25,019 nucleotides of DNA from a virus. The notes under the pieces were generated by a model, which saw only the letters and a program-made list of their open reading frames with translations, was not told the DNA's origin and did no database searches. Both the position numbers and the translations under genes were made by a program. Location of the stretch: positions 1 through 25,019 of IMG/VR virus record IMGVR_UViG_3300044949_001034. One strand, given 5' to 3'. Positions 2,090-14,146 of the stretch are shown one piece after another (positions within the stretch are counted from its first letter, which is position 1; every line of letters begins with the position of its first letter).

Positions 2090-2092
2090 TTA

Positions 2093-2121
2093 CGCAAAAA
2101 ATACAACTCTTATAATGAGGA
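2093..2121 (+). promoter_or_regulatory. Promoter P1 of the repeated family
   Basis: CGC at 2093, ATACA at 2101-2105, 5 nt, TATAAT at 2111-2116, then GAGGAG. The ATACA-N5-TATAAT layout matches eight other sites in the window. There is no TTGACA-like hexamer 17 nt upstream of TATAAT. Confidence 0.75.
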
Positions 2122-2327: not shown

Positions 2328-2368
2328 AAAAAAGCCTCTAGCACCCTAAACAAGTGCTATGCTTTTTT
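2328..2368 (+). terminator. Terminator T1 of the repeated family
   Basis: AAAAAAGC ... TAGCAC, an 8-nt loop, GTGCTA ... GCTTTTTT. The stem has a small internal loop (CTC against T) and ends in six T residues. The A-tract on the left arm would allow some termination in both directions. Confidence 0.85.
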
Positions 2369-5310: not shown

Positions 5311-5348
5311 ATCTAGTCACCTGGGCATGTGAATAAAAGGCCCCCCTT

Positions 5349-5378
5349 CGCAAGAAATACACACGGTATAATAGGAAT
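5349..5378 (+). promoter_or_regulatory. Promoter P2 of the repeated family
   Basis: CGC at 5349, ATACA at 5357-5361, 5 nt, TATAAT at 5367-5372, AGGAATC. No -35 consensus is visible. The 5311-5348 stretch before it has no terminator of the repeated family. Confidence 0.8.
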
Positions 5379-5572: not shown

Positions 5573-5612
5573 CAAAAGCCTCTGGCACTCATACAAGTGC
5601 TATGCTTTTTTT
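5573..5612 (+). terminator. Terminator T2 of the repeated family
   Basis: AAAAGC, CTCTGGCAC, loop TCATACAA, GTGCTAT, GCTTTTTTT. The inner stem carries a G-U pair (GGCAC against GTGCT). Just upstream, ATCGACT pairs with AGTCGAT around the stop codon at 5556-5558, a further small hairpin. Confidence 0.87.
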
Positions 5613-5616
5613 CCTT

Positions 5617-5646
5617 CGCATCTAATACAACTGTTATAATAGGAAT
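5617..5646 (+). promoter_or_regulatory. Promoter P3 of the repeated family
   Basis: CGCATCTA, ATACA at 5625-5629, 5 nt, TATAAT at 5635-5640, AGGAATC. It begins only 5 nt after terminator T2. Confidence 0.8.
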
Positions 5647-5925: not shown

Positions 5926-5965
5926 CAAAAAGCCTCTGGCACTCATACAAGTGCTATGCTTTTTT
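5926..5965 (+). terminator. Terminator T3 of the repeated family
   Basis: AAAAAGC, CTCTGGCAC, loop TCATACAA, GTGCTAT, GCTTTTTT. Its T-tract abuts the CGC that begins promoter P4. Confidence 0.87.
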
Positions 5966-5998
5966 CGCGTAAAAAACAACTCCTATAATGAGGAATCA
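5966..5998 (+). promoter_or_regulatory. Promoter P4 of the repeated family, one-base variant
   Basis: CGCGTAA, AAACA at 5974-5978 in place of ATACA, 5 nt, TATAAT at 5984-5989, GAGGAATC. It is the only member lacking the exact ATACA. Confidence 0.75.
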
Positions 5999-6206: not shown

Positions 6207-6211
6207 GTCTT

Positions 6212-6242
6212 CGCATGAAATACACGTGGTATAATAGGAATC
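6212..6242 (+). promoter_or_regulatory. Promoter P5 of the repeated family
   Basis: CGCATGAA, ATACA at 6220-6224, 5 nt, TATAAT at 6230-6235, AGGAATC. It begins 5 nt after terminator T4. Confidence 0.82.
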
Positions 6243-6505: not shown

Positions 6506-6517
6506 GACTTTTATACT

Positions 6518-6548
6518 CGCATGAAATACATCTCATATAATAGGAATC
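6518..6548 (+). promoter_or_regulatory. Promoter P6 of the repeated family
   Basis: CGCATGAA, ATACA at 6526-6530, 5 nt, TATAAT at 6536-6541, AGGAATC. The segment TTGACTTTTAT before it is shared with P7, but it lies too far upstream to act as a normal -35 box. Confidence 0.82.
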
Positions 6549-6847: not shown

Positions 6848-6859
6848 GACTTTTATGCT

Positions 6860-6890
6860 CGCATGAAATACATCTCCTATAATAGAACTA
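6860..6890 (+). promoter_or_regulatory. Promoter P7 of the repeated family
   Basis: CGCATGAA, ATACA at 6868-6872, 5 nt, TATAAT at 6878-6883, then AGAACTA instead of AGGAATC. The core is intact. Confidence 0.8.
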
Positions 6891-8900: not shown

Positions 8901-9050
8901 GAAGTTTGAAAACTGGTTGATTTTCTTGTGTGATAAATGTTGGAATCTGCTGAGGACGGCCTTTCATAAAAAGGTTAGATTCAGCAGATTCCAACATGCA
9001 CAAAATATACAATTTCTATTTTTTTTTCAAAAATGACAGGATTTGACAAG
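8864..9050. repeat. 12-bp inverted repeat pair spanning the helicase 3' end
   Basis: CTTGTCAAATCC at 8864-8875, within the end of the helicase gene, is exactly inverted as GGATTTGACAAG at 9039-9050. A second TTGTCAAATC occurs at once after the first. The pair encloses the hairpin at 8937-8997. It may be part of the same control or origin region. Confidence 0.4.
8937..8997. repeat. Perfect 17-bp hairpin after the helicase gene
   Basis: ATGTTGGAATCTGCTGA at 8937-8953 is exactly complementary to 8981-8997. Within the loop, CCTTT at 8960-8964 can pair with AAAGG at 8970-8974. A run of nine T residues starts about 20 nt after the stem, too far for a standard intrinsic terminator, though termination or RNA 3'-end protection remains possible. 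It is the most stable short hairpin in the gene-poor region. Confidence 0.6.
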
Positions 9051-9141: not shown

Positions 9142-9299
9142 GTCAAAAATTTAAATTTTCGATTAAAAACTTTTTCAAAATCTCTAAGTTTATACTCTCT
9201 TATATACGCGCGATAAAAAATATATAGAGTATAAGAGTTTAGAGAGTATAAACTTCACGATTTTAAAAAAGTTTTTAAGCGTTTTTTTAAATTTTTGAC
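9142..9299. repeat. 158-bp imperfect inverted repeat, possible origin or control region
   Basis: Two 59-bp arms (9142-9200 and 9241-9299) are inverted copies with about 50 of 59 positions matching, around a 40-bp AT-rich centre containing CGCGCG. The innermost 15 bp (AAGTTTATACTCTCT and its complement) are perfect. GAGTATAA occurs three times here in one or other orientation. No gene overlaps it. AT-richness, iteron-like repeats and the nearby helicase fit a replication origin or a complex operator, but neither is shown. Confidence 0.6.
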
Positions 9300-9865: not shown

Positions 9866-9876
9866 TTAACGATTTT

Positions 9877-9890
9877 GAGAGTATAAACTT
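9877..9890 (+). repeat. Third copy of the 14-mer GAGAGTATAAACTT
   Basis: The same 14-mer occurs at 9242-9255, and inverted at 9186-9199 in the large inverted repeat. This copy ends one base before promoter P9 begins, where an activator or repressor would bind. The flanking ACGATTTT is also shared with the origin-like region. Confidence 0.6.
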
Positions 9891-9891
9891 T

Positions 9892-9921
9892 CGTACAAAA
9901 TACATATGTTATAATAGGAGA
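9892..9921 (+). promoter_or_regulatory. Promoter P9 of the repeated family
   Basis: CGTACAAA, ATACA at 9900-9904, 5 nt, TATAAT at 9910-9915, AGGAGAG. Unlike P1-P8 it heads a long operon: two nucleases and the RNA polymerase-like gene. It has no paired terminator nearby. Confidence 0.75.
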
Positions 9922-9929
9922 GAGGTAAA

Positions 9930-9995
9930 ATGTCACGACAATTCCTTTCTTTTTTGGAGGAATCGTGTCTGAGAACCAGTACCAACAAAAATTGA
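9930..9995 (+). CDS. Possible 21-aa leader peptide
   Basis: ATG at 9930 follows GGAGAGAGGTAAA, a good ribosome binding site 15 nt downstream of the P9 -10 box. The short frame (MSRQFLSFLEESCLRTSTNK...) ends at 9995, overlapping the start of the next gene in another frame. It could be a real micropeptide or a leader that couples translation to the nuclease gene. There is no independent evidence for a function. Confidence 0.35.
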   Translation: MSRQFLSFLEESCLRTSTNKN

Positions 9996-10258
9996 TAAAG
10001 AAAATTAAGGTTATGTTTCCTGGTTGCTACGTTTTAAAAAACGATCCGAGCTATAACCAAGGTATACCAGACCTTATTGTTTTGTTTAAAGATAAATGGG
10101 GCATGTTAGAAGTAAAGATAAAAGCTAATGCTACGGAACAACCAAACCAACGTTACTATGTTGAACAATTGTCCGACATGTCTTTTGCCGCATTTATATC
10201 TCCAGACAATGAAGAGGAAGTATTAAATGAACTTCAACGTGCATTCGGAGTTATCTAA
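9965..10258 (+). CDS. VRR-NUC-type PD-(D/E)XK nuclease, 97 aa
   Basis: GTG at 9965 follows TTTGGAGGAATC. The core GIPDLIVLFKDKWGMLEVK gives the PD-(D/E)XK triad D36, E49 and K51, preceded by PGCYVLKNDPSYNQ. The later QPNQRYYVEQL is typical of compact VRR-NUC domains. Phage members are structure-selective nucleases in replication or recombination, cutting flaps or junctions. The gene overlaps the next by 32 nt, and both probably belong to the P9 transcript with the polymerase-like gene. Confidence 0.88.
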   Translation: MSENQYQQKLIKKIKVMFPGCYVLKNDPSYNQGIPDLIVLFKDKWGMLEVKIKANATEQPNQRYYVEQLSDMSFAAFISPDNEEEVLNELQRAFGVI

Positions 10259-10787
10259 AAAACACGCCTTTTTAAGCCCAAGCCAACATCACTGGGTTAA
10301 TTATAATGAACAGAAGCTAGAGGCGAGATTTGTTTCTTGGGCGGCTTCAGTTCGAGGTACAGATCTACACAATTTAGCTCACGAAGCAATACGGCTTGGA
10401 GTAAAACTTTCTTCGTCAAACAAGACGCTTTCGATGTACGTCAACGACGCAATAAATTACAAGATGACTTGCGAACAAACCTTGTATTATTCAGATAATT
10501 GTTTTGGTTCGGCAGATACTATATCTTTCCGAAAGAACAAACTAAGAATACACGATTTGAAAACCGGAATTACGGCCGCTCACCATCGTCAACTTGAGAT
10601 TTATGCTGCGCTTTTTTGTTTGGAATACTCTGTTGACCCATTAGACATTGACATTGAGTTAAGAATTTATCAAAGTGGCGAAGTTCGGATCTACGATGCC
10701 GACCCAGAAGTTATAATAAACATCATGAATACAATTATCGATTTTGACATGAAAATTCAATTTATGAAGGAGCGGGGGATTGTATGA
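10227..10787 (+). CDS. RecB/Cas4-like PD-(D/E)XK exonuclease, 186 aa
   Basis: The N-terminal part has LSPSQHHW and RGTDLHNLAHEAI (helix with a conserved His), as in RecB-family nucleases. The catalytic core is GSADTISF (D97), LRIHDLKTG (D110, K112) and RQLEIYAAL (Q122), the canonical motifs II to IV of this family. No C-terminal iron-sulfur cysteine cluster is evident, unlike Cas4. It probably processes DNA ends during replication or recombination. The start overlaps the upstream nuclease, and its end overlaps the next gene by 4 nt (ATGA). Confidence 0.85.
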   Translation: MNFNVHSELSKKHAFLSPSQHHWVNYNEQKLEARFVSWAASVRGTDLHNLAHEAIRLGVKLSSSNKTLSMYVNDAINYKMTCEQTLYYSDNCFGSADTISFRKNKLRIHDLKTGITAAHHRQLEIYAALFCLEYSVDPLDIDIELRIYQSGEVRIYDADPEVIINIMNTIIDFDMKIQFMKERGIV

Positions 10788-13453
10788 TAATTGATGAAGA
10801 TGATTACCTGGCGCACTATGGAACTCCCCGAAAGAGTGGTAGGTATCCTTACGGTTCTGGTGGAGACCCGGCGCAGAGAAACAGAGAGTTTCTTGATATC
10901 GTAGACCAACTCAAGCGAGATGGTTTAAGTGATGTCGAAATTGCTGAAGCGTTTGAAATTAAAACCACGCAACTTCGTGCAAGACGAACCATTGCGAATA
11001 ACGAACGCAAAAGAGAACAAATTGCAGAAGCAGAAAAGTTAAAAGAAAAAGGTTGGTCTAACTCTGCGATTGGTAGACAAATGGGAATTAACGAATCTTC
11101 GGTTCGTGCCCTTTTGGCACCAGGTGCTAAGGAAAAGTCCGAAGCTCTTCTTTCGACAGCGAACATGTTAAAAGAACAGGTTGACATTCATAAGTACGTT
11201 GACGTTGGTCGCGGTGTTGAAAACTATATAGGTGTTACAAAAGAGCGACTTCGTTCAGCGATTGCTATTTTAAAAGAAGAAGGCTACCGAATCCACTACA
11301 CTGCCGAAAAAGGTCTTGGTACAGGAAAAGATGTTTCTAAGATAGTTTTAACTGGCGCTGAAACAACTGGAAAAGAAGTCTACGCCAATCGAGATAAGAT
11401 AATGATCCCGACAGTGGAAACTTCTGATTATGGGAAAACCTTTTCAAACACTTTAGGAATGCTTCCGCCAATTTCGGTAGATCCGAAAAGGGTAGGTATT
11501 TTGTATGCAAAAGATGGAGGCGCTCAAGCGGATGGTGTTATTTACGTTCGTCCGGGAGTTCCAGATGTATCCTTGGGTAATAACAAATATGCACAAGTTC
11601 GAATTCTTGTCGACAAGACGCATTATTTGAAGGGTATGGCGTTATACAAAGACGACCTTCCAAAAGGTATCGATCTTTTGTTTAATACGAATAAAGAAGA
11701 CACGGGTAATAAACTCGATGCACTAAAGCCTATTACAGATGTTCCAGACAATCCATTTGGCGCAATTGTTAGACAACTTAGGCAGGAGCTCCCAGATGGT
11801 ACTAAGGGCAAACTTACCTCGGCTATGAACCTTGTTAATGAAGAGGGTGACTGGGAAAAATGGTCTAGAACTCTTTCCAGACAAGTACTCTCGAAACAAT
11901 CACCGTCCTTGGCTAAGGAACAACTAGACATTAATTATGAAAACCGAATAGCCGAATATCAGTCTATTATGTCGATGACAAACCCAACAGTTAGGCGAAA
12001 ACTACTTCAAGAGTTTAGTGACTCAACGGATTCTTCTGCTGTGCATTTAAAAGCCGCATCAATGCCAAGACAGGCAACAAAAGTTATTCTTCCCGTTAAT
12101 TCATTAAAACAAAACGAAGTGTATGCGCCAGGGTTTAAAGACGGTGAATTGGTAGCTTTAATACGGTTCCCTCATGGTGGAACGTTTGAGATCCCAGAAT
12201 TAACGGTTAATAACCGACACGCCCCTGCACGTAAACTTTTAGGTGACACAAAAGATGCGATTGGCATTAACAGTCGCGTTGCAGAAAGACTTTCTGGTGC
12301 CGACTTTGACGGGGACACGGTTTTAGTGATTCCGAATAACAACAAAAGAATTAAAAGCACCCCTGCGCTTGAGGATTTAAAAGACTTTAATCCTAGAGAA
12401 AAGTATAGACAGTACGATGGTATGAAAGTCATATCAGAACAACATATGCAAAAACAGATGGGTGACATTACTAACTTAATCACCGATATGACGATTAGGA
12501 AAGCGACTGCATCTGAATTGGCGCGTGCTGTTAAACACTCTATGGTTGTTATTGACTCACACAAACACAAACTCGATTACAAACAGTCGGCTAAAGACAA
12601 TAATATATCACAGCTTAAACTAAAGTATCAGGGTTCTGCTGATAGTGGTGCTACTACTATCTTCTCACTTGCTGAGTCGCAAGCGCAAACCCTCGACAGA
12701 AGGCCTAGGCGTGCTGCTGACGGTGGTCCCATTAATAAATTGACTGGCGCACTAGAGTATGAGTATACTGGCGCTACCTACACGGACAAAAAGGGTAGGG
12801 TTAAAGCCAAGCCGGGACCAAAGTCTGTTAAACTTGCCGAAACACGGGATGCAAGTACGCTTTCTTCTGGGACCCCTATAGAGCGGGTGTATGTAAGCTA
12901 CTCTAACAACATGAAGGCGTTAGCCAATCAGGCTAGATTAGACATGATTAACACCCCCCGTATAGTCAGATCCCCAAGTGCGGCTAAAGTGTACTCAACA
13001 GAGGTGAGTCAGCTAAAAGCTAGCCTAACTATTGCTCTAAGAAACGCCCCCCTCGAAAGAAAAGCCCAGTCCCTGGCTGGTACACAGTCGAGAGCGATCA
13101 TAGAGGCAAATCCAGGAATGGATAACACACAAAGAAAGAGAATTGAAGCACAATCCCTTTCTGAAATGCGTATAAGAGTTGGTGCCAAGAAGATTAAGAT
13201 AGAGATAACTCCTAAACAATGGGAGGCTATACAAGCTGGTGCTATTGCTGATAGTGTGTTGAAGTCTATACTAGACAACGCTGACATGGAAATAGTTAGA
13301 TCTCTCGCTTTACCAAAGACAGAATCTATTATGTCTAGCTCAAAGATTAGACAGGCAAAGAGAATGCTTGATAATGGATACACTCGAACAGAAGTAGCCG
13401 ACCAGCTTGGTGTTTCAGTTAAGACATTAGATCGTGCCACAGTCGATTCGTGA
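10784..13453 (+). CDS. Single-chain RNA polymerase-like protein (double-psi barrel, DFDGD), 889 aa
   Basis: Residues 503-515 read RLSGADFDGDTVL, with D507, D509 and D511 in the metal-binding DxDxD of multisubunit-type RNA polymerases (NADFDGD in beta-prime). Upstream, LIRFPHGGTFEIPELTVNN and the IGIN segment mirror the barrel strands leading to that loop. Downstream, VVIDSHKHKLD (about 588-598) resembles the VD-x-x-K segment of YonO/RNA-dependent-polymerase relatives. The N-terminus has HYGTPRKSGRYPYGSG (11-26) and two helix-turn-helix-like segments (about 43-70 and 83-113); another ends the protein (861-889). The family occurs in other actinobacterial and Firmicutes phages, usually as hypothetical. 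Polymerase activity is inferred. It may be packaged in the virion. Confidence 0.75.
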   Translation: MIIDEDDYLAHYGTPRKSGRYPYGSGGDPAQRNREFLDIVDQLKRDGLSDVEIAEAFEIKTTQLRARRTIANNERKREQIAEAEKLKEKGWSNSAIGRQMGINESSVRALLAPGAKEKSEALLSTANMLKEQVDIHKYVDVGRGVENYIGVTKERLRSAIAILKEEGYRIHYTAEKGLGTGKDVSKIVLTGAETTGKEVYANRDKIMIPTVETSDYGKTFSNTLGMLPPISVDPKRVGILYAKDGGAQADGVIYVRPGVPDVSLGNNKYAQVRILVDKTHYLKGMALYKDDLPKGIDLLFNTNKEDTGNKLDALKPITDVPDNPFGAIVRQLRQELPDGTKGKLTSAMNLVNEEGDWEKWSRTLSRQVLSKQSPSLAKEQLDINYENRIAEYQSIMSMTNPTVRRKLLQEFSDSTDSSAVHLKAASMPRQATKVILPVNSLKQNEVYAPGFKDGELVALIRFPHGGTFEIPELTVNNRHAPARKLLGDTKDAIGINSRVAERLSGADFDGDTVLVIPNNNKRIKSTPALEDLKDFNPREKYRQYDGMKVISEQHMQKQMGDITNLITDMTIRKATASELARAVKHSMVVIDSHKHKLDYKQSAKDNNISQLKLKYQGSADSGATTIFSLAESQAQTLDRRPRRAADGGPINKLTGALEYEYTGATYTDKKGRVKAKPGPKSVKLAETRDASTLSSGTPIERVYVSYSNNMKALANQARLDMINTPRIVRSPSAAKVYSTEVSQLKASLTIALRNAPLERKAQSLAGTQSRAIIEANPGMDNTQRKRIEAQSLSEMRIRVGAKKIKIEITPKQWEAIQAGAIADSVLKSILDNADMEIVRSLALPKTESIMSSSKIRQAKRMLDNGYTRTEVADQLGVSVKTLDRATVDS

Positions 13454-13489
13454 TACAACGTATAGATCAATAAGTAGGTGAGTATAGTA

Positions 13490-13747
13490 ATGATACGTTC
13501 AATGTTGACGACAATAGATAATCCATACGATCCGTTTGATCAGTTTGAAGAATGGTATACTTGGGACTTCAATTCAAACTACCACACCCCCTCCTTCCTG
13601 GCTAGGGTGGCAAACACTTCAGAATCTTTAACTGAAAATCTACAGTCAATAGAGATTGATAGAGCTATAGATGAAATTTTAAAAGAAAATGTTCTTGGTA
13701 TCTATAGAAAAGTAAGTCGAGAAGTAGAAGAATCGGAATTGGGTTAG
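13490..13747 (+). CDS. Conserved phage protein upstream of packaging genes, 85 aa
   Basis: ATG at 13490 follows TAGGTGAG; a GTG at 13478 in frame is less favoured. The opening MLTTIDNPYDPFDQFEEWY...YHTPSFLARVANTSE and ending LGIYRKVSREVEE match a small acidic family very common in actinobacterial and Firmicutes phages near the lysis and terminase genes. Its role is not known to me. The gene follows the polymerase-like gene by 36 nt and precedes the GC-rich repeats. Confidence 0.85.
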   Translation: MIRSMLTTIDNPYDPFDQFEEWYTWDFNSNYHTPSFLARVANTSESLTENLQSIEIDRAIDEILKENVLGIYRKVSREVEESELG

Positions 13748-13812: not shown

Positions 13813-13862
13813 CCCGCCTCCCAAAAATATCCCCGGGGGGACTTTTACATTAATGTGTTTGG
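13813..13862 (+). repeat. cos-like GC-rich direct repeat, copy 1
   Basis: CCCGCCTCCCAAAAATA, then CCCCGGGGGG, then TTTTACATTAATG. It is closely matched by the copy at 14094. C-rich/G-rich cores of this sort upstream of the terminase genes of HNH-type phages often mark the cohesive-end site, but cleavage here is not shown. Confidence 0.65.
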
Positions 13863-13867
13863 TTTAA

Positions 13868-14134
13868 ATGGAGAAGCAGGCTGGTATGACTGACGAACGT
13901 GCCCGGATTATCGTAGCAATGCGCCAACGCTTTGCCGCCTACTGGGCGCTGACGCAGCAGGAGCGTGACTTGCTGGACGACGGGCGACTCATCCCGGTCA
14001 AAGAAACCGAGGAACTGTTCGAGCAGGCAATGGGCGGTGATGAGTTAACAACATGGCCGAAACGAAGTTTCCGCGTGGTCGCATGGCAGGCCCCCCGCCT
14101 CCCAAAAATAACTCCGGGGGAAATTTTACATTAA
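13868..14134 (+). CDS. Hypothetical 88-aa GC-rich gene between cos-like repeats
   Basis: ATG at 13868 lacks a clear ribosome binding site; an alternative ATG at 13886 (MTDERARIIVAMRQRFAAYW) is possible. The product is helical and charged (TQQERDLLDDGRLIP). Its last dozen residues (RLPKITPGEILH) are encoded by the second cos-like repeat, so the repeat supplies the stop codon. Its base composition is clearly more GC-rich than the neighbouring genes. It looks like an inserted gene carried with a duplicated flanking repeat. Not recognised. Confidence 0.6.
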   Translation: MEKQAGMTDERARIIVAMRQRFAAYWALTQQERDLLDDGRLIPVKETEELFEQAMGGDELTTWPKRSFRVVAWQAPRLPKITPGEILH

Positions 14135-14146
14135 TGAGTTTTTTGG
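14094..14146 (+). repeat. cos-like GC-rich direct repeat, copy 2
   Basis: CCCGCCTCCCAAAAATAAC, then CCGGGGG, then TTTTACATTAATGAG. It lies 281 bp after copy 1 and encodes the end of the intervening gene. The palindromic C/G core is shorter here than in copy 1. Confidence 0.65.

What the first reader, a model, noticed from the sequence alone, without database searches (positions are those of the whole stretch)
10784..13453. Single-chain RNA polymerase-like protein with helix-turn-helix ends
The GADFDGD loop, the barrel-like sequence before it, and the downstream VVIDSHKHKLD segment together resemble the catalytic beta-prime half of double-psi barrel polymerases. Among single-chain polymerases, YonO of SPbeta and crAss-like phage gp66 are established relatives of this class. 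The helix-turn-helix-like segments at both ends could give promoter recognition without a sigma factor. Proteins like this are generally left as hypothetical, so an actinophage polymerase family may be unrecognised.
Basis: partly seen in the sequence, partly recalled or inferred. Interest (0 to 1): 0.85.

Follow-up and report, generated by a model that had tools for sequence, protein, structure and literature searches.

The report
Phage RNA polymerase and its promoters
The gene encodes a one-chain virus RNA polymerase of the same deep class as cellular RNA polymerases, and sequence comparison suggests that its own built-in DNA-reading domains recognise a conserved 29-base start signal in front of the virus's early genes, so no separate sigma factor would be needed.

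Summary
Window 10784-13453 encodes an 889-residue protein with GADFDGD (D507/D509/D511) and three helix-turn-helix (HTH) segments. The aspartates, and the lysines K283 and K304 of the other barrel, are invariant in 26 relatives fetched without using those motifs. A core model (pLDDT 91, pTM 0.82) matches QDE-1 (E 3e-11), phage P74 gp62 and P32 gp64, and RDR2: a single-chain two-barrel RNA polymerase. The family is not unrecognised. It is PHROG 4291, misnamed "RNA-dependent RNA polymerase", in 250 phage records including Lactococcus and Faecalibacterium phages. It is distinct from YonO by sequence.

New here: a 29-bp promoter, TCGCrnrAAwTACA-N5-TATAATGAGA, multi-copy and co-oriented. It occurs in 12 of 12 genomes examined (some as variants) and 21 of 21 contigs picked only for encoding the polymerase. 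It is absent from same-host phages without it. Its spacing is conserved across hosts of three bacterial classes, although the -10-like hexamer changes. A weak copy usually precedes the polymerase operon. The two genomes whose second HTH lost conserved E and R are the two that lost the TCGC box. The polymerase therefore probably reads its own promoters. Untested: catalysis, start sites, source of the first enzyme, late genes.

The parts
10784..13453 (+). single-chain two-barrel RNA polymerase, 889 aa (PHROG 4291)
10883..10999 (+). HTH1 (about residues 34-72)
   Evidence: helices H36-45, H50-56, H61-88 in the model; Pfam HTH hits; alignment
11015..11131 (+). HTH2 (about residues 78-116), recognition helix NESSVR with E104 and R108; proposed reader of the TCGC promoter box
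   Evidence: Sigma70_r4_2-like; E104 and R108 invariant in A1; covariation with the promoter box
11581..11713 (+). stretch of the first barrel (DPBB-B) with putative active-site lysines K283 (11630-11632) and K304 (11693-11695)
   Evidence: invariant in A1 and in 12 genomes; strands in the model
12071..12343 (+). second barrel (DPBB-A, about residues 430-520) with RFPHGG and GADFDGD (D507/D509/D511 at 12302-12316)
   Evidence: Pfam RdRP weak match to residues 498-596
12542..12577 (+). conserved post-barrel helix segment MVVIDSHKHKLD
   Evidence: invariant residues in A1; helix in the model
13337..13435 (+). HTH3 (about residues 852-884), C-terminal, resolvase-like
   Evidence: HTH_23 1.3e-8, HTH_7 1.4e-6
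13478..13747 (+). companion ORF, 89 aa, PHROG 4303, unknown function; found in the same number of phage records with the same genus tallies as the polymerase (250)
9965..10258 (+). VRR-Nuc nuclease, first gene of the polymerase operon
   Evidence: homologous to annotated VRR-Nuc genes
10227..10787 (+). Cas4-like exonuclease (PHROG 3953), overlaps the polymerase start
9891..9919 (+). polymerase-operon promoter, weak variant TCGTACAAAATACATATGTTATAATAGGA, 46 bp before VRR-Nuc
   Evidence: same position in most relatives
2092..2120 (+). promoter copy ACGCAAAAAATACA-N5-TATAATGAGG
5348..5376 (+). promoter copy TCGCAAGAAATACA-N5-TATAATAGGA
5616..5644 (+). promoter copy TCGCATCTAATACA-N5-TATAATAGGA
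5965..5993 (+). promoter copy TCGCGTAAAAAACA-N5-TATAATGAGG
6211..6239 (+). promoter copy TCGCATGAAATACA-N5-TATAATAGGA
6517..6545 (+). promoter copy TCGCATGAAATACA-N5-TATAATAGGA
6859..6887 (+). promoter copy TCGCATGAAATACA-N5-TATAATAGAA
7084..7112 (+). promoter copy TCGCATGAAATACA-N5-TATAATAGGA
2330..2368 (+). first of eight similar hairpin plus T-run terminator-like elements in the early region (others start near 5573, 5927, 6168, 6466, 6806, 7047, 7354); several stand directly before a promoter copy

Best explanation
The protein is a single-chain DNA-dependent RNA polymerase of the two-barrel (double-psi beta-barrel) class, made by one old lineage of tailed phages of Gram-positive hosts. One barrel supplies D507/D509/D511 for the metal ions and the other supplies K283 and K304. 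Its own HTH domains take the place of a sigma factor. HTH2 (recognition helix NESSVR) reads the upstream TCGC box of a 29-bp promoter, TCGC-N7-ACA-N5-(TATAAT-like)-GAGA, other parts of the enzyme read the ACA box and the initiation region, and RNA starts shortly after the last element. Multi-copy promoters of this type head the early operons, several of them just behind a terminator-like hairpin. A weaker copy heads the VRR-Nuc/exonuclease/polymerase operon, giving a damped positive feedback loop. Shown computationally: fold class, residue conservation, the promoter family, its tight link to the polymerase, and box/HTH2 covariation (two independent events). Inferred: catalysis, DNA template, HTH2-box contact, start site, feedback. 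Unknown: the source of the first polymerase (virion, or weak host transcription) and what transcribes the late genes, which lack the motif.
For: Polymerase: D507/509/511, K283 and K304 invariant. Core model pLDDT 91.1, pTM 0.82; Foldseek best hits QDE-1 3.4e-11, P32 gp64 1.7e-7, P74 gp62 2.8e-7, RDR2 about 1e-6, P23-45 gp96 2.4e-4. Promoter: 9 copies in the window, all +, with 6 matches to a strict pattern against 0 in 100 shuffles; weight matrix from 101 sites; spacing almost exclusively N5; one strand only in each annotated genome. 21 of 21 contigs chosen by polymerase protein alone carry the motif. 31 of 50 contigs chosen by motif alone match the polymerase profile, and 22 of 23 of those of at least 40 kb. 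No copies in phiC31, R4, ReqiDocB7, sk1, TP901-1, SPbeta or phi14:2; only 104 stretches in 257 Gb of prokaryote genomes, none of the listed ones actinobacterial. The same layout with a changed -10-like hexamer in Faecalibacterium (12 copies, one spacing only) and a changed upstream box in Lactococcus. Operon promoter: 43 of 76 loci against 1 of 76 reverse strand and 3 of 76 shuffled. HTH2/TCGC covariation: P162 (SPGSVT) and L133 (TSTYK) lost TCGC; the other 31 genomes, with E..R, keep CG.
Against: No biochemistry and no mapped start site. In most members the last element is TATAAT followed by GAGA, which a host sigma-A could also use. The motif heads early genes, yet the polymerase gene sits in a delayed position behind a weak copy, so the first round of transcription is unexplained. 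There is no copy in the late region, although the related YonO works on late genes. P162 has no copy near its polymerase. L123 (HTH2 helix DTTVG) keeps ACGC in its weak operon site, which does not fit a simple E/R-to-TCGC code. The whole lineage is co-inherited, so motif and polymerase could be linked through another lineage protein.
Confidence: 0.72

Rival explanations
1. The protein is a real two-barrel polymerase, but the 29-bp motif is an early promoter for the host sigma-A polymerase; the phage enzyme transcribes the late genes from an unrelated promoter, as YonO does in SPbeta.
For: In most genomes the last element is TATAAT plus a GAGA discriminator; motifs head early genes that need transcription before any phage protein is made; YonO transcribes late genes (PMC5467207); no motif copies in the late region.
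Against: No -35 element at 17 bp. An upstream TCGC/TTACA block at fixed spacing is kept, in whole or part, in phages of Actinobacteria, Bacilli and Clostridia. Non-sigma-like -10 sequences in some genomes: CTTTAT in FP_oengus, TGTAAT in G096, TAGAAT in G098. Absent from other phages of the same hosts. The TCGC box changes when HTH2 of the phage polymerase changes. No shared late motif was seen at the genome ends compared.
Confidence: 0.15
2. Another lineage protein, for instance the 89-aa companion of PHROG 4303 or a small HTH protein, binds the motif and recruits either polymerase; the polymerase's own HTHs do something else.
For: PHROG 4303 is found in 250 phage records with the same genus tallies as the polymerase. 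Short proteins resembling the polymerase's HTH region occur in some related contigs.
Against: None of ten conserved or companion proteins tested has a recognised DNA-binding or sigma domain. The box covaries with a recognition helix inside the polymerase.
Confidence: 0.1
3. It is a true RNA-dependent RNA polymerase, as databases name it.
For: Database names, a weak Pfam RdRP match, best fold match to QDE-1, which copies RNA and DNA.
Against: dsDNA phages, three DNA-binding-type HTHs, and a promoter-like DNA motif that covaries with one HTH. YonO, a phage enzyme of the same class, is DNA-dependent (PMC5467207).
Confidence: 0.02
4. It is a catalytically dead relative kept as a DNA-binding protein, as 'helix-turn-helix DNA-binding protein' annotations imply.
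For: Many phage records name it only for its HTH.
Against: All catalytic residues are invariant across deep divergence.
Confidence: 0.01

Closest known systems
PHROG 4291 (annotated RNA-dependent RNA polymerase)
   Same: Full-length match, E 0, residues 3-885; this is the family.
   Different: The family name is probably wrong as to template; its promoters are not part of any description I could read.
QDE-1, RNAi polymerase of Neurospora
   Same: Single chain, two barrels, best fold match (E 3.4e-11).
   Different: Eukaryotic, no HTH promoter readers known to me, about 11-14% identity.
Thermus phage polymerases gp64 and gp62 (P23-45 group)
   Same: Single-chain two-barrel phage polymerase (E about 2e-7); P23-45 gp64 acts on early genes (PMC10770324), the class of gene that carries the motif here.
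   Different: About 592 residues in the solved chains against 889, and no detectable sequence match by phmmer or profile search.
YonO of SPbeta
   Same: Single chain, FDNDGD aligned with ADFDGD and the RxPH barrel motif; an exonuclease gene nearby.
   Different: Profile comparison not significant (probability 1.7%); late genes; promoter unknown in the 2017 paper; SPbeta has no copy of this motif.
crAss-like phage gp66 (phi14:2)
   Same: Single-chain two-barrel phage polymerase according to PMC10770324.
   Different: 2180 residues against 889; not compared by alignment here; its genome has no copy of this motif.

Membership tests
Two-barrel (double-psi) RNA polymerase superfamily, single chain | DxDxD metal triad in one barrel | tested here: met
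   D507/D509/D511 invariant in A1 and in 12 genomes
Two-barrel (double-psi) RNA polymerase superfamily, single chain | conserved lysines in the other barrel | tested here: met
   K283 and K304 invariant in A1 and in 12 genomes; their placement at the active site was not measured on coordinates
Two-barrel (double-psi) RNA polymerase superfamily, single chain | predicted fold with both barrels, matching solved members | tested here: met
   Model pLDDT 91, pTM 0.82; best hits span nearly the whole core. TM-scores modest (about 0.32-0.46 by query), limited by domain placement; barrel-to-barrel geometry not inspected
Two-barrel (double-psi) RNA polymerase superfamily, single chain | RNA synthesis activity | not testable with these tools
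   needs protein
PHROG 4291 | full-length profile match | tested here: met
   1231.7 bits, residues 3-885 of 889
YonO family | significant profile similarity | tested here: not met
   hhalign probability 1.7%, E 0.03, though the catalytic motif is aligned
YonO family | transcribes late genes | not testable with these tools
   motif copies are in the early region only
Eukaryotic RdRP (Pfam PF05183) | score above the curated cut-off | tested here: not met
   17.5 bits against 23.8 for the window protein; 19 of 26 members give a match at E up to 1, best 2.1e-5
Host sigma-A type promoter (for the 29-bp motif) | -35 TTGACA about 17 bp before the -10 | tested here: not met
   positions upstream of TCGC carry at most 0.2 bits each
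Host sigma-A type promoter (for the 29-bp motif) | -10 TATAAT-like hexamer | tested here: inconclusive
   met in most genomes, not in FP_oengus (CTTTAT), G096 (TGTAAT) or G098 (TAGAAT)

The most novel reading that the evidence does not exclude
A sigma-free, single-chain relative of cellular RNA polymerase that carries its own promoter-reading domains, with a readable code: HTH2 sets the TCGC box (TAAC or none when HTH2 changes), and HTH1 may set the ACA box (in L042/G097, HTH1 and the ACA box are both altered; one case). The code has been kept across phages of Actinobacteria, Bacilli and Clostridia, which would make it, as far as I could check, the first promoter defined for this phage polymerase family.
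Probability: 0.62. Interest if true: 0.87.

Novelty: new variant of a known kind. Interest (0 to 1): 0.72.

Why it matters
How a single-chain two-barrel polymerase finds its start sites is open: the YonO paper states that its promoter, and any need for helper factors, remain to be determined. Here a family found in hundreds of phage records comes with a predicted promoter sequence, a predicted reading domain and natural variants (TCGC versus TAAC) that make short bench tests possible. If right, it shows how a sigma factor's job can be built into the catalytic chain of a relative of cellular RNA polymerase, and gives compact T7-like expression tools for Actinobacteria and other Gram-positive bacteria.

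Tried and rejected
The repeat CCCGCCTCCCAAAAATA..TTTTACATTAATG (13813 and 14094) was first taken for a late promoter. Comparison with phage genome ends shows it is the left side of the cos site, and ACATTAATG is not clearly enriched. Sequence search of the PDB with the protein or its profiles gives no polymerase hit of note; only the fold search does. A generic de novo repeat scan is swamped by codon bias in GC-rich Scap1; the weight matrix solved this. The first FP_oengus scan seemed negative; reading its upstream regions showed the changed hexamer, confirmed by the spacing test. The one motif contig of at least 40 kb without the polymerase (G047) has five motif copies and ends inside an early region, so it is probably cut off. 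Plasmids: no relative. Papers: no description of this promoter found, but several key papers (Iyer and Aravind 2012, Ruprich-Robert 2010, Drobysheva 2021, Summer 2011) are not held, so prior mention cannot be excluded.
Full report
1. What is there. GADFDGD is residues 505-511. Two HTHs lie in tandem near the N-terminus and one lies at the C-terminus. The first ~30 residues carry an unrelated, very conserved SGRYPWGSG motif.

2. Is it a polymerase? The protein matches PHROG 4291 end to end, and 250 public phage records hold a relative. In 26 aligned sequences, fetched by peptides outside the catalytic site, D507, D509, D511, K283 and K304 are invariant. They remain invariant when Lactococcus P162 and Faecalibacterium FP_oengus (about 38-43% identity) are added. 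The larger set A2 includes sequences fetched by GADFDGD itself, so its D conservation is not counted. A full-length model (pLDDT 78.9, pTM 0.62) and a core model of residues 225-845 (pLDDT 91.1, pTM 0.82) both find QDE-1 first (2.6e-8 and 3.4e-11). The core model next finds the P32/P74 phage polymerases, plant RDR2 and P23-45 gp96. TM-scores are modest (0.32-0.46 for the best hits), as expected for shared barrels with different clamps. I had no coordinates, so barrel-to-barrel geometry was not measured.

3. What it is not. Profile comparison with a 17-sequence YonO family gives probability 1.7%, though the single alignment pairs ADFDGD with FDNDGD and RFPH with RSPH. It is the same superfamily by fold and motif but another family by sequence. 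Nothing here supports 'RNA-dependent' as the template. No plasmid record carries it.

4. The lineage and neighbourhood. Relatives belong to one lineage with shared terminase, portal, capsid, DNA polymerase, helicase, VRR-Nuc, Cas4-like exonuclease, polymerase and an 89-aa protein. In the cos phages the polymerase is the last large gene before cos, and the 89-aa protein (PHROG 4303) is found in 250 records with the same genus tallies. The window is a 25-kb IMG/VR fragment that runs from the early region through the polymerase and across cos (about 13819) into the late genes.

5. A promoter family. The window's early region holds nine copies, all on the + strand, of a motif close to TCGCATGAAATACA-N5-TATAATAGGA; several stand just behind a terminator-like hairpin, and ribosome-binding-like sequences usually follow. 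A weight matrix from 101 sites in the window and relatives gives T-C-G-C-r-n-r-A-A-w-T-A-C-A-N5-T-A-T-A-A-T-G-A-g-A with no -35 element. At ACA-N5-TATA the counts per genome are 2 to 27 (0 in FP_oengus), at other spacings mostly 0 (ReqiPepy6 also has 9 at N3, a by-product of its ACACAC sequences), and the reverse strand is near 0. Scap1 carries a TATAGT variant and Lactococcus P162 a TTTTAAGTTTTACA-N5-TATAATG variant. FP_oengus carries ACGCGAAAAATACA-N5-CTTTATGG: 12 copies at one spacing, none at neighbouring spacings, none on the other strand. The layout is thus conserved over hosts of three bacterial classes while the -10-like hexamer drifts, which is not what a host sigma-A promoter would be expected to do.

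6. Link between promoter and polymerase. Forward test: 21 of 21 contigs chosen only because they encode the polymerase carry the motif, almost always multi-copy (one has a single copy) and on one strand apart from one stray hit, against a single hit for the reversed pattern. Reverse test: of 50 contigs chosen only for the motif, 31 match the polymerase profile, including 22 of 23 of at least 40 kb. Controls on the same hosts without it (phiC31, R4, ReqiDocB7, sk1, TP901-1), SPbeta and phi14:2: none; YonO-family phages: chance singles. Prokaryote genomes: 104 stretches in 257 Gb. The polymerase operon itself has a weak copy, often the lowest scoring of the genome, 46-87 bp before VRR-Nuc in most genomes. 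In 43 of 76 loci fetched by protein alone a copy scores at least 5 bits, against 1 of 76 on the reverse strand and 3 of 76 in shuffles.

7. Which protein reads it? Co-inheritance alone cannot tell. But the recognition helix of HTH2 is ES-S/T-V/I-R in nearly all (E and R in 94 of 97). The two examined genomes that lack both residues, P162 (SPGSVT) and L133/G073 (TSTYK), are the two whose promoters lost TCGC; G073 has TAACA or AAACA in ten of eleven sites and TCACA in the other. All 31 others keep CG. Counting genomes, p = 0.002, uncorrected for kinship, with two independent changes. L088, with E and R kept, keeps TCG[CT] in its early promoters. L123 (DTTVG) does not fit, on one weak site only. 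In L042, HTH1 is altered (TVSELK for TTTQLR) and the ACA box is altered too: one case. Ten other conserved or companion proteins tested have no recognised DNA-binding domain.

8. How it works, and what is open. Most likely the enzyme binds the upstream boxes with HTH1-HTH2 and starts RNA just past the TATAAT-like element, driving early operons and, weakly, its own. Open: who makes the first polymerase, and how late genes are read. They have no copy. Nearly all genes run the same way and the polymerase operon is the last before cos, so read-through across joined ends is possible but untested.

9. Literature. PMC5467207: YonO is a DNA-dependent enzyme for SPbeta late genes, promoter unknown. PMC10770324: 23 two-barrel families, with phage single-chain enzymes and RNAi polymerases in one clade, and P23-45 gp64 reading early genes. 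Whether this family is one of the 23 could not be checked.

Noticed in passing
13813-13860 and 14094-14141: Left cos side is present twice, 281 bp apart, in the window; the cos core (GGGGAGGGG..TCGCA..CCCCCC..CTGCATCGCC | CC..AAAAAT..CCCCGGGGG) is conserved in related phages, in part even in Lactococcus P162.
   Followed up: partly
13478-13747: 89-aa PHROG 4303 protein found in the same number of phage records (250), with the same genus tallies, as the polymerase; candidate partner or cos-proximal protein.
   Followed up: partly
G024:C1:27211-27378 and G049:C1:5406-5573: Separate short ORFs resemble the polymerase's HTH region (residues 65-120); possible promoter competitors or repressors.
   Followed up: no
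about 8936-8998: Long near-perfect inverted repeat (TGTTGGAATCTGCTGA / TCAGCAGATTCCAACA) after the helicase gene.
   Followed up: no
9185-9260 and 9875-9890: AT-rich stretch with repeated AGAGTATAAACTT-like words before the HNH gene and again just before the operon promoter.
   Followed up: no
1295-1378: tRNA-Leu (anticodon TAA) in the early region.
   Followed up: no
Rima genome end (L368), about 55.9-56.1 kb of the record: Long imperfect hairpin (GTGACTCGGAGTCAGCC-type arms) between the companion ORF and cos.
   Followed up: no
10784-10864: First residues carry an almost invariant SGRYPWGSG motif (SGRYP then GSG) that the full-length model leaves unstructured; function unknown.
   Followed up: no
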